From contig VMSQ01000072.1 of assembly GCA_013792055.1 (NCBI GenBank), positions 1-32,044 on the forward strand: a stretch of DNA of 32,044 nt, given 5' to 3'. Numbering within the stretch: position 1 is the stretch's first letter; each line of letters opens with the position of its first letter. The notes under the pieces are model-generated. The model was given only the letters and a program-made list of their open reading frames with translations, had not been told where the DNA came from and did not search any database. Shown here in pieces: positions 26,664 to 32,023 of the stretch. The position numbers and the translations under genes were made by a program. The stretch is from Desulfobacteraceae bacterium. Lineage in GTDB: Bacteria; Desulfobacterota; Desulfobacteria; Desulfobacterales; ETH-SRB1.

Positions 26664-26670
26664 GTTCGGC
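26664..26670 (-). other. attC-like half-site (GCCGAAC) just downstream of the ParE-type toxin gene
   Basis: Minus strand GCCGAAC followed by CTATCAGTTCAGGTGACAG; complete site not resolved. Confidence 0.35.
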
Positions 26671-26683
26671 GATGCTTAGCAAG

Positions 26684-26983
26684 TCATACCAAGCGATTGC
26701 GCCACTTCTTTGGGTCCCGGGATGCATGGAAGATGCAGTAGACGGTCACCTTCCCACCAGTGTACTCATAAAAGATGGCGTACGGAAATCGCCTCACCAA
26801 TGCCCGACGATACTCCTCGTGGACTTTCGAGTGGAGTTCAGGCATGCGACAAATTGCTTGAATACAGGCGTCCACACAGCCGAGAAACTCTTCCCCCAGG
26901 CCAAGTCGACGATTTTCGTACCAGTAATATGCTTCATCGACGTCTTGTTGTGCTTCTGGCGCGATTATTAGTTCAGCGACCAT
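26684..26983 (-). CDS. RelE/ParE-family toxin
   Basis: ELIIAPEAQQDVDEAYYWYENRRLGLGEEFL...HEEYRRALVRRFPYAIFYEY...VTVYCIFHASRDPKKW. Confidence 0.92.
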   Translation of the reverse strand: MVAELIIAPEAQQDVDEAYYWYENRRLGLGEEFLGCVDACIQAICRMPELHSKVHEEYRRALVRRFPYAIFYEYTGGKVTVYCIFHASRDPKKWRNRLV

Positions 26984-27197
26984 AGCGACTTCGAACCCTC
27001 TGTTTAACTTCGTCCCATGAAAGCCCAGAAGCCGGCTTGCTCATCAAATTGGCCTTTCGACGAGCCAACTCCTCCTTTTGCCATTCATGCACAGGAACCT
27101 CTGACGGAGTAGCCGCCAGATCGTCCCATAGATCTTCCACCAGTTGCAACTTCTCTGGTGGACTCAGGTTGAATATGGAAACAGTATTTAAATTCAT
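26973..27197 (-). CDS. Addiction-module antitoxin (putative addiction module component family)
   Basis: LSPPEKLQLVEDLWDDLAATPSEVPVHEWQKEELARRKANLMSKPASGLSWDEVKQRVRSR; overlaps the toxin start. Confidence 0.88.
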   Translation of the reverse strand: MNLNTVSIFNLSPPEKLQLVEDLWDDLAATPSEVPVHEWQKEELARRKANLMSKPASGLSWDEVKQRVRSRYGR

Positions 27198-27275
27198 TAT
27201 TACCTCCTGATAATAGGACAATCCCAACGTTCGAATTGATTGTTTCAGTTACCACCTGCAAGTTATATTTTCTCC

Positions 27276-27336
27276 GCCGAACAAATAGCTAACTGGCTCC
27301 GGTCACGCGCCGGCGTGATCGGAGTCCATGTTCAGC
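27276..27336 (-). other. attC-like site E (61 bp): GCTGAAC...GTTCGGC
   Basis: Minus strand GCTGAACATGGACTCCGATCACGCCGGCGCGTGACCGGAGCCAGTTAGCTATTTGTTCGGC; TGGaCTCCG / CGGAGCCA arms with one extra base. Confidence 0.65.
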
Positions 27337-27342
27337 GACTCA

Positions 27343-27816
27343 TTAGAATATACTCTCCAAACAAAAACATGTTAATTCTTTTACTTTATCCCATTCGATG
27401 CATGCAGGTTTATTTTTACATTCCTTACAAAGGGTTTCAATATTATCTTTGCTTATGAACATTGTTTCCTTTTCTGTGTGTAAATCAAATAACCGCTTCA
27501 AATACTTACCTGCGACAAGTCGATGCAAGTTATCTTTTTCTTTAAGTCCTAACCATACAAAAACACCTTTGTCGCCTCTTGAACTATTGCATTTTTGGCA
27601 AGACCAAACCATATTGTCTGCGGAATCATTACCTCCTCTGTTGCGTGGAATAAGATGATCCATTTGAAGGTTTTCCGTTGTATAACAAAAAACACATTCT
27701 TTAGGGAGTTCTTGCTCTTTTTGCCATTCTCGAATAGTCCCTGATATTGTAATTTTATTGCCACAAAGAGCTTTAAATCTATCAGATACAAATTTATAAT
27801 TCACCTTTCCATTCAT
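27343..27816 (-). CDS. HNH endonuclease family protein
   Basis: CVFCYTTENLQMDHLIPRNRGGNDSADNMVWSCQKCNSSRGDK. Confidence 0.9.
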   Translation of the reverse strand: MNGKVNYKFVSDRFKALCGNKITISGTIREWQKEQELPKECVFCYTTENLQMDHLIPRNRGGNDSADNMVWSCQKCNSSRGDKGVFVWLGLKEKDNLHRLVAGKYLKRLFDLHTEKETMFISKDNIETLCKECKNKPACIEWDKVKELTCFCLESIF

Positions 27817-30479: not shown

Positions 30480-30522
30480 TATATTATTCAATTTTATCCC
30501 CTGAAAACACAATATTTGTCCC

Positions 30523-30580
30523 GCCAAACATTTCGATAAGGCGCGGCGGCTTTTTGCCGTCGCCCTTCATGCCGTTATGT
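30523..30580 (-). other. attC-like site B (58 bp): ACATAAC...GTTTGGC
   Basis: Minus strand ACATAACGGCATGAAGGGCGACGGCAAAAAGCCGCCGCGCCTTATCGAAATGTTTGGC; arms AAGGGCGACGGC/GCCGCCGCGCCTT. Confidence 0.6.
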
Positions 30581-31289
30581 TTTTAAAGTGCATTATTACC
30601 CCTTCTTCAAAAGCGTTTTGCAAAAGCTGCATTGATAGCAGTTTCCAGACGATTTCTTTGTTTTTCTCTGTTGAGAAATGAAACCAATCACCTATTTCCA
30701 AGGTGGAATTACTTTCGTGTGCAAAATCACTGCGAGCCTTATAAATCATTTCTGCCACCTTTTCGATCGTTTTGACTGGCTTCCCGTTGATGGTTATTGA
30801 GTTTCGAAGCTTATCCTTTGTTGGTGGAGGCAAATTGGCGAAAAATGATTTGCAACGTCTGATTGATCCATATTCTGATTTGTATTCATCATACAGTTTC
30901 TGCAATTGTGACCTATCTGTTATTGGGAATAATCCTCTTTTATCTTTTTCTGAGAGCCATTCAAAGAAATCGACGTTCTTTTTGTTGGAGAGACTTTCGA
31001 TTATTGCAAGCATGGCGACGAGTTTAAAAGAATTAGTAAAATATTCAATTACAGGGTTTGAGCGTGGAACATTTACATGCCAGTCCCCATTCTTTACGAA
31101 GAAAAGATATGTAGAACCAACTCGAAGGAATTCATTTTTTGTTTCCAAATCATTTAACGTAGAATAGAATGCCTCGAAAGCTTGGTAATTTTCAAACTGT
31201 GAAGAAAGTGCTCGGTACGCATCATCTTTGTAATCATCGTCATCACAGTATTTGTATTTCTTTCTCATGGCTTTGTTCCATTGAAACAT
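30567..31289 (-). CDS. HEPN-like protein (putative RNase motif RSDFAH)
   Basis: AEMIYKARSDFAHESNSTLEIGDW gives an R-x4-H motif in a helical C-terminal region; start MFQWNK at 31289 fits the proposed cassette boundary. Confidence 0.55.
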   Translation of the reverse strand: MFQWNKAMRKKYKYCDDDDYKDDAYRALSSQFENYQAFEAFYSTLNDLETKNEFLRVGSTYLFFVKNGDWHVNVPRSNPVIEYFTNSFKLVAMLAIIESLSNKKNVDFFEWLSEKDKRGLFPITDRSQLQKLYDEYKSEYGSIRRCKSFFANLPPPTKDKLRNSITINGKPVKTIEKVAEMIYKARSDFAHESNSTLEIGDWFHFSTEKNKEIVWKLLSMQLLQNAFEEGVIMHFKNITA

Positions 31290-31406
31290 AATGTCCGTGA
31301 TAAGCTGGCAGGAAGGGACTCTGCCTTGTAAGCGCTGAGTTATCCATGCCATCTCAAAGCCTCAGCCGCACGACCTTCCTGATCAGATTTCATCACGTTG
31401 TTATCT
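31286..31406 (-). other. Long attC-like site A (121 bp, VCR-like size): AGATAAC...(A)TTATGT
   Basis: Arms CGTGATGAaatCTGATCAGGAAGG and CCTTCCTGCCAGCTTATCACG; inner GCTGAG/CTCAGC; contains the stop codon of the upstream ORF. Confidence 0.55.
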
Positions 31407-31940
31407 GTTTTCGAACCTCTCCTGTGATGCTGTATTATAGGCAATTTCAAGCCCCATAGTTATAGGCCACCGCTCGCCATCATCAGTAGATTTGTCGATT
31501 AGATTAAAAGCACAATGCTCGCATAGAAGGCATAACTCTGGCTCTGAAGACCTTCTGGCCAAAGCAAGTGTAAAATCATCTACAGGAAGGTTTTCTAATA
31601 ACTCGGTATCTAAGTTCCCATTAGCTAACATGCGAACTGTATAATGGCCTTCTTTCGGCGTGCCTGATATAAGGATAAATTTGTCCTTTGTTGCTTTTGC
31701 AAATGCATTGATTTTTATATATTCTTTCTCAGAAATTGAATCCGGCTTAATTTCAACCCAACAACTGTAATCTGGCAGAAAAAAATCAGGTAGATACCTT
31801 ACGCCATCAATATCAAAGCCTTCCTTTTCGTATTCATACACAATATTCAATGTTCTGAAAAATACAGCCCACCTGGCCTCAAGTCGGCTGCGAAATAGAT
31901 CTCCATTATATTCTGTTTCAATTGGTTTCATTCTATTCAC
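31401..31940 (-). CDS. PD-(D/E)XK-like nuclease-fold protein
   Basis: YNGDLFRSRLEARWAVFFRTLNIVYEYEKEGFDIDGVRYLPDFFLPDYSCWVEIKPD: E...PDF...WVEIK pattern. Confidence 0.65.
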   Translation of the reverse strand: MNRMKPIETEYNGDLFRSRLEARWAVFFRTLNIVYEYEKEGFDIDGVRYLPDFFLPDYSCWVEIKPDSISEKEYIKINAFAKATKDKFILISGTPKEGHYTVRMLANGNLDTELLENLPVDDFTLALARRSSEPELCLLCEHCAFNLIDKSTDDGERWPITMGLEIAYNTASQERFENR

Positions 31941-31941
31941 T

Positions 31942-32023
31942 AGATAACAATTTAAACGTTAAGAAATAAATTAAGGATATTAGCTGTCCAAATATTATTT
32001 CTTGATTTCAATTGTATATAAAT
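31942..32023 (-). other. attC-like imperfect palindrome Z upstream of the PD-(D/E)XK cassette, ending in GTTATCT
   Basis: Minus strand ATACAATTGAAATCAAGAAATAA...TTATTTCTTAACGTTTAAATTGTTATCT; GTTATCT is the exact reverse complement of AGATAAC in site A. Confidence 0.5.

What the first reader, a model, noticed from the sequence alone, without database searches (positions are those of the whole stretch)
26664..32023. Unannotated integron-type cassette array (possible CALIN) carrying protease, nuclease, HEPN and TA genes
All genes here (two-gene ParE TA module; HNH; CHAT-like; metacaspase; HEPN-like; PD-(D/E)XK-like) lie on the minus strand. An imperfect palindrome or half-site sits immediately at or overlapping the 3' end of each gene or TA pair. 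The ends are of AAC...GTT type: AGATAAC, ACATAAC/GTTTGGC, GCCGAAC/GTTAGAA, GCTGAAC/GTTCGGC, and a GCCGAAC half-site. The palindrome sequences are otherwise unrelated, as attC sites are conserved in structure rather than sequence. The 7-mer GTTATCT just upstream of the PD-(D/E)XK gene is the exact reverse complement of AGATAAC at its 3' end, as expected for cassette boundaries. Two ORF stops fall inside or next to the R'' box, and the CHAT start is 7 bp after a boundary. Established: integron attC sites follow RYYYAAC...GTTRRRY and cassettes share one orientation. Inference: this is such an array. No integrase lies in the window; given the orientation it should lie to the right.
Basis: partly seen in the sequence, partly recalled or inferred. 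Interest (0 to 1): 0.88.

Follow-up and report, generated by a model that had tools for sequence, protein, structure and literature searches.

The report
Integron cassette array with own attI
This stretch is a genuine integron cassette array, a row of five captured gene cassettes (toxin-antitoxin, proteases, nucleases, a HEPN-like gene) ending at an attI docking site; sister species keep similar docking sites next to the same housekeeping genes, mostly without the integrase gene, but with different captured genes.

Summary
Two searches that did not use the window sequence, plus a pairing test, support this. (1) A covariance model trained only on attC sites outside the window ranks four sites in the array first in the 32-kb window, all on the minus strand. 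(2) The last 99 bp of the contig match, at 85%, the DNA beside an intact intI gene in a same-genus genome; it ends in ...TTTAAATTGTT, where the cassettes start. (3) For five cassettes, the 5' box pairs with the cassette's own 3' box in 6-7 of 7 positions, as in plasmid integrons; neighbouring cassettes pair in only 3-5. Corrections: five cassettes, CHAT and HNH share one, and the left-most attC is probably truncated. No intact intI was found in this genome (only remnants), so the state is CALIN-like but with attI. attI-like sites recur (6 in this genome, up to 10 in sisters), nearly all without intI; orthologous sites beside purH and hisD hold unrelated cassettes in different species, diverging at GTT. 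Several cassettes resemble phage-defence genes, a content already known for integrons.

The parts
31946..32044 (-). attI site (with the start of the Pc/Pint region); cut by the end of the contig
   Evidence: 85% identical over 79 bp to DNA directly upstream of an intact intI in a same-genus genome (G007:C427) and 100% over 99 bp to the purH-side copy C88
31400..31948 (-). cassette 1: PD-(D/E)XK-like nuclease gene (31401-31940); 5' box GTTATCT, 3' box AGATAAC (7/7 pairing)
   Evidence: motif RSRLEARWA..YLPDFFLPD..WVEIKP read from the sequence; no Pfam hit
31286..31406 (-). attC of cassette 1, long (about 120 nt), degenerate; R'' AGATAAC, R' ATTATGT (boundary chosen after the fact)
   Evidence: fold z -1.7, pairing test; the start of the annotated HEPN ORF lies inside it
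30574..31292 (-). cassette 2: HEPN-like gene (ORF 30567-31352; true start probably MFQWNK, inside or next to the R' box)
   Evidence: HEPN_Apea 15.2 bits, below cut-off 24.4; invariant R207/H212; 3' box ACATAAC 6/7 with its 5' box
30523..30580 (-). attC of cassette 2: ACATAAC..GTTTGGC
   Evidence: best CM R2 hit in the window, E 0.027; scanner score 13.5
28955..30529 (-). cassette 3: caspase-like lipoprotein gene (28974-30527)
   Evidence: Peptidase_C14 64 bits, cut-off 21.4; PADLOC caspase 74 bits; boxes pair 6/7
28891..28961 (-). attC of cassette 3: GCCGAAC..GTTAGAA
   Evidence: best scanner hit 18.4, fold z -6.2, CM R2 E 0.32; terminal hairpin AAATGCTGGCGCATTT shared with an attC of own contig C175
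27342..28897 (-). cassette 4, two genes: CHAT-like protease (28015-28935) and HNH nuclease (27343-27816); 3' box TTCTAAT overlaps the HNH stop codon
   Evidence: CHAT fold: top PDB match SAVED-CHAT, E 3.4e-7; HNH 46 bits, cut-off 21.4; boxes pair 6/7
27276..27348 (-). attC of cassette 4: TTCTAAT..GTTCGGC
   Evidence: CM R2 alignment, E 1.8; scanner 16.9 on the 61-bp core, fold z -4.8
26664..27282 (-). cassette 5: antitoxin (26973-27227) and ParE toxin (26684-26983)
   Evidence: ParE_toxin 36 bits, Unstab_antitox 67 bits, both over cut-off; boxes pair 7/7
26564..26670 (-). R'' box GCCGAAC of cassette 5 and a probably truncated attC running into a HigA-like remnant (about 26470-26640)
   Evidence: CM R2 E 0.79 for 26564-26670; HigA-like frame read across the proposed R'

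Best explanation
The region is a chromosomal integron cassette array: attI at 31946-32044 followed, reading leftwards, by five cassettes (PD-(D/E)XK nuclease; HEPN-like; caspase-like lipoprotein; CHAT protease + HNH nuclease; ParE toxin-antitoxin), each closed by an attC site. Shown here: attC-type structures at the cassette ends, pairing of each cassette's own end boxes, attI homology, and exchange of whatever follows GTT at orthologous attI sites in sister species. Inferred from established integron biology: an IntI integrase joined circular cassettes (attC, folded bottom strand) to attI, with crossover between G and TT, and the Pc promoter near attI reads the first cassettes. The local integrase gene is not seen: the contig ends inside the attI region and no intact intI was found in this 96%-complete genome, so any present activity would need an unassembled intI or one supplied from elsewhere. 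The toxin-antitoxin cassette would tend to hold the array, and several other cassettes resemble abortive-infection or nuclease defence genes; that they act against phages is an inference.
For: Scanner over the whole window ranks array sites 1st, 2nd and 4th; 0 of 100 shuffles reach the weakest of the three. CM R2, trained without the window, gives its top four hits at array boundaries on the minus strand. Own-end pairing 7,6,6,6,7 of 7 versus 6-7 in plasmid cassettes and 3-5 between neighbours in the array; about 1e-7 under a random-pair null leaving out the box chosen after the fact. Right end homologous to DNA beside intact intI in G007:C427 and G008:C183. Orthologous purH- and hisD-side attI copies carry unrelated DNA after ..TTTAAATTGTT in different species. 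Other attC-bearing contigs in the same genome. Cassette genes are patchy, yet 65-74% identical proteins exist, some named as Sideroxyarcus, Sulfuritalea or Methylococcaceae.
Against: CM E-values for single sites are weak (0.027 to 1.8). Model R1, dominated by plasmid attC, gave only E 1.8 or worse and missed the 28891 site. The 30523 hairpin is no better than shuffles by energy alone (z -0.8). Two boundaries (cassette 1/2 and the left end) are degenerate, and one box was chosen after the fact. No intI adjoins the array in the assembled sequence. IntegronFinder itself could not be run.
Confidence: 0.93

Rival explanations
1. Ordinary defence island or accessory gene string with chance palindromes or transcription terminators between same-strand genes.
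For: Gene content is typical of defence islands; one hairpin is not better than shuffles.
Against: Own-end box pairing, attI at the predicted end, no shuffle reaching the observed scores.
Confidence: 0.03
2. A complete integron cut by the assembly: an intact intI lies just right of 32044 and the array is not integrase-less.
For: The contig ends inside the attI region with an exact 99-bp overlap to C88, as at an assembly branch; attI-side intI is intact in G007:C427 and G008:C183; another attI copy, C258, also ends just before where intI would start.
Against: The identical copy C88 has only a short intI stub before purH, and a search of the whole genome found no hit near the family cut-off, only remnants.
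Confidence: 0.25
3. Cassettes inserted at secondary (attG-type) sites rather than at a true attI; the repeated element is only a dispersed repeat.
For: Some copies (type 2: own C132, G008:C243, G001:C378) lack GTT, have repeat-like ends and no detectable attC behind them.
Against: Type-1 copies lie directly upstream of intact intI in two genomes and carry its 5' end and promoter-like region; divergence after them starts at GTT.
Confidence: 0.05

Closest known systems
Sedentary chromosomal integron (for example those of Vibrio and Xanthomonas)
   Same: attI, one-direction attC cassettes, toxin-antitoxin cassette, genes of mostly unknown or defence-like function
   Different: short array, attC sites dissimilar to each other, no intact intI in the assembled genome, attI-like sites at several chromosomal loci
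[quoted passage not shown] conserved loci in Xanthomonas, PMC12444791)
   Same: at least two attC sites without a neighbouring intI; sites conserved at fixed chromosomal positions across species
   Different: an attI-type site is still present at the head, and orthologous intI-less attI sites hold different cassettes in different species
Integrons as phage-defence libraries (Darracq 2025, Getz 2025, Kieffer 2025, as cited in PMC12444791)
   Same: caspase/CHAT, HEPN, nuclease and TA cassettes; a sister attI locus in the same genome (C258) is followed by PD-T4-2 genes
   Different: another bacterial group; no function tested
Delta-attI cassettes of mobile integrons (PMC12901181)
   Same: attI-derived sequence found away from intI
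   Different: here attI copies sit beside housekeeping genes, not as cassette 3' ends

Membership tests
Integron cassette array | attC sites (R''/R' boxes around an imperfect hairpin) at cassette ends, one orientation | tested here: met
   two of the five ends are degenerate
Integron cassette array | each cassette's own 5' and 3' boxes complementary (circle form) | tested here: met
Integron | attI at the head of the array | tested here: met
   homology to intI-adjacent DNA in G007 and G008
Integron | intI gene next to attI | tested here: inconclusive
   contig ends inside the attI region; no intact intI found in G000; remnants in C317 and C15
CALIN | at least two attC sites and no integrase nearby | tested here: inconclusive
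   attC part met; absence of intI cannot be shown past the contig end
Integron | cassette gain or loss with crossover at G^TT | tested here: met
   shown at orthologous purH, hisD and other attI loci of sister species, not for this array itself
Integron | IntI-catalysed recombination of these sites | not testable with these tools
   needs a recombination assay
Anti-phage defence genes | match to known defence systems over cut-off or protection in assay | tested here: inconclusive
   PADLOC caspase 74 bits; other cassette genes weak or none

The most novel reading that the evidence does not exclude
The genus runs a distributed integron: several attI docking sites, most without their own integrase gene, kept at fixed places beside housekeeping genes (purH, hisD and others) and loaded with different cassettes in different species by an integrase acting in trans, possibly after dispersal of a small intI-stub/promoter/attI unit.
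Probability: 0.3. Interest if true: 0.75.

Novelty: new variant of a known kind. Interest (0 to 1): 0.5.

Why it matters
Integrase-less attC clusters are common, but the surveys read here identify them by attC and IntI, not by environmental attI. Finding attI still at the head of such an array, and at orthologous loci in sister species with the cassettes exchanged, would show where such arrays sat and would make it testable whether an integrase elsewhere can fill intI-less sites. It also adds defence-like cassettes from another bacterial group, probably Desulfobacterota (inferred from the named relatives of the caspase gene).

Tried and rejected
Rfam gathering search: no hit in the window. CM R1, dominated by plasmid attC, was too narrow. 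GCTGAAC as the HNH-side R'' was replaced by TTCTAAT, 12 bases upstream, which fits both the CM R2 alignment and the pairing test. An R' for the TA attC at 26564-26570 was doubted because a HigA-like frame runs through it. Caspase relatives in named MAGs mostly match only in the caspase domain and lie away from detectable attC; two (L148, L152) are on attC-bearing contigs. CHAT and HEPN searches in plasmids gave no close relative. A structure search for the HEPN-like protein gave no useful match. Synteny around the beta-eliminating lyase places the array's left flank but does not identify its right flank. Relation of C175's tyrosine recombinase to intI was rejected: it scores far below the IntI cut-off and sits next to an IS91-type transposase.

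Full report
What was checked. The window is a whole contig (G000:C137, 32044 bp) of a draft genome of 3.17 Mb in 340 contigs. Domain searches support ParE toxin, its antitoxin, HNH and caspase over their cut-offs; CHAT and HEPN are below cut-off and the PD-(D/E)XK gene has no Pfam hit. The CHAT assignment was strengthened by a confident structure model (mean pLDDT 90.5) whose best PDB matches are SAVED-CHAT and caspases. The HEPN assignment rests on a weak Pfam match and the invariant R207/H212 pair; its structure search gave nothing.

Are the boundary palindromes real? A scanner for RYYYAAC..GTTRRRY boxes around a single hairpin, run on both strands of the whole window, puts array sites first (28891-28961, 18.4), second (27276-27336, 16.9) and fourth (30523-30580, 13.5). 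Known plasmid attC sites mostly score 14-31. In 100 dinucleotide shuffles of the array segment the maximum never exceeds 13.0. The single-hairpin energies are strongly better than shuffles for two sites (z -6.2, -4.8) but not for the third (-0.8).

Covariance models. Model R1, built from 17 attC sites (ten from plasmid integrons, seven from relatives), gives only weak hits in the window (E 1.8 or worse), but finds attC sites on several other contigs of this genome. Model R2, built from 46 aligned sites none of which is from the window, has its four best hits in the window at array boundaries, all on the minus strand: 30523-30580 (E 0.027), 28891-28961 (0.32), 26564-26670 (0.79), 27276-27348 (1.8). 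No single E-value is decisive; the coincidence of all four with the proposed boundaries is.

Circle test. In the excised circle a cassette's own 5' box pairs with its own 3' box. For the five cassettes the Watson-Crick counts are 7, 6, 6, 6, 7 of 7; plasmid cassettes give 6-7; neighbouring boxes in this array give 3-5. Among 120 reassignments of boxes only 2 do as well. With the HEPN 5' box, chosen after the fact, left out, the random-pair null gives about 1e-7. This test also corrects the gene count: CHAT and HNH lie in one cassette, whose 3' box TTCTAAT overlaps the HNH stop codon.

attI. The last 99 bp of the contig recur exactly in own contig C88, beside purH, and diverge right after ..TTTAAATTGTT. 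A same-genus genome has the same kind of sequence (85% identical over 79 bp) immediately upstream of an intact, divergently oriented intI (G007:C427; also G008:C183). The window's two ends overlap other contigs by exactly 141 and 99 bp; both are values of a common assembler's k list (own knowledge), so the right-hand break looks like a graph branch at attI. What lies beyond is therefore not known; the purH region is the likeliest candidate.

Distribution and exchange. Searching nine genomes of the genus with the attI sequence gives 34 matches in seven genomes, six of them in this genome and ten in G002. Of the copies examined in context, only G007:C427 and G008:C183 have a full adjacent intI; G002:C9 has a stub of about 50 residues, and C88 and three other copies keep a short 5' stub of intI. 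At orthologous places, purH (G000, G002, G007), hisD (G000, G002) and two more, the upstream DNA is 89-95% identical while the DNA after GTT shows no similarity; one pair (G002:C111 and G007:C462) is conserved on both sides. This shows cassette-type exchange at these sites, though many of the copies have no attC detectable with my models behind them, so they may be decayed, and type-2 copies may be a dispersed repeat.

Integrase. No intact intI was found in G000: the best hits to TIGR02249 are 82 bits against a cut-off of 265. C317 holds an intI with its middle deleted and C15 a 3' fragment. With 95.8% completeness and the contig ending in attI, an unassembled intI is not excluded.

Content and transfer. 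CHAT relatives at 65-74% identity include proteins named Sideroxyarcus, Sulfuritalea and Methylococcaceae; HEPN relatives include Nitrosomonas at 68%. In 396 genomes of the order they occur in 6 and 4, the genome itself included. A sister attI locus, C258, is followed by PD-T4-2 A and B genes (517 and 208 bits). Defence cassettes in integrons are known (cited in PMC12444791), so this content is not new.

Filing. As a cassette array with attI it is an integron by every feature that could be tested except the adjacent integrase. It would be a CALIN by the IntegronFinder definition (PMC9024848) if no intI lies past the contig end. The unusual part is the intI-less attI at several fixed loci.

Noticed in passing
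L127 (G000:C132) 47-130 and 2189-2268; L112 (G008:C243): attI-like type-2 copies that end in AATATTGGG instead of GTT, with possible terminal inverted repeats (AGCTCCAATATT / AATATTGGGAGC), flanking a DUF4062-like or RloAB-like gene set; perhaps a dispersed small element made from the intI start and attI.
   Followed up: partly
L082 (G000:C175) 118-8076: another attC-bearing contig of the same genome with a CAP12/Pycsar-type TIR gene and a weak Abi-alpha match; a tyrosine recombinase and an IS91-type transposase are inserted there.
   Followed up: partly
L024 (G000:C258) 1945-4578: PD-T4-2 A and B genes downstream of an attI copy whose contig ends just before the place of intI.
   Followed up: partly
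L044 (G007:C427) 2720-3960: IS91-type transposase-like gene lies directly after attI in the sister genome with intact intI (read from the sequence, not searched).
   Followed up: no
window 26470-26640, minus: HigA-like antitoxin remnant at the left end of the array, in an open frame across the proposed last R' box.
   Followed up: partly
window 27816-28015, minus: short frame (MHSCSNDIYYNAKEFGRSLQPIRIVENTIKIVKEKQS) between CHAT and HNH, perhaps a lost or third small gene of cassette 4.
   Followed up: no
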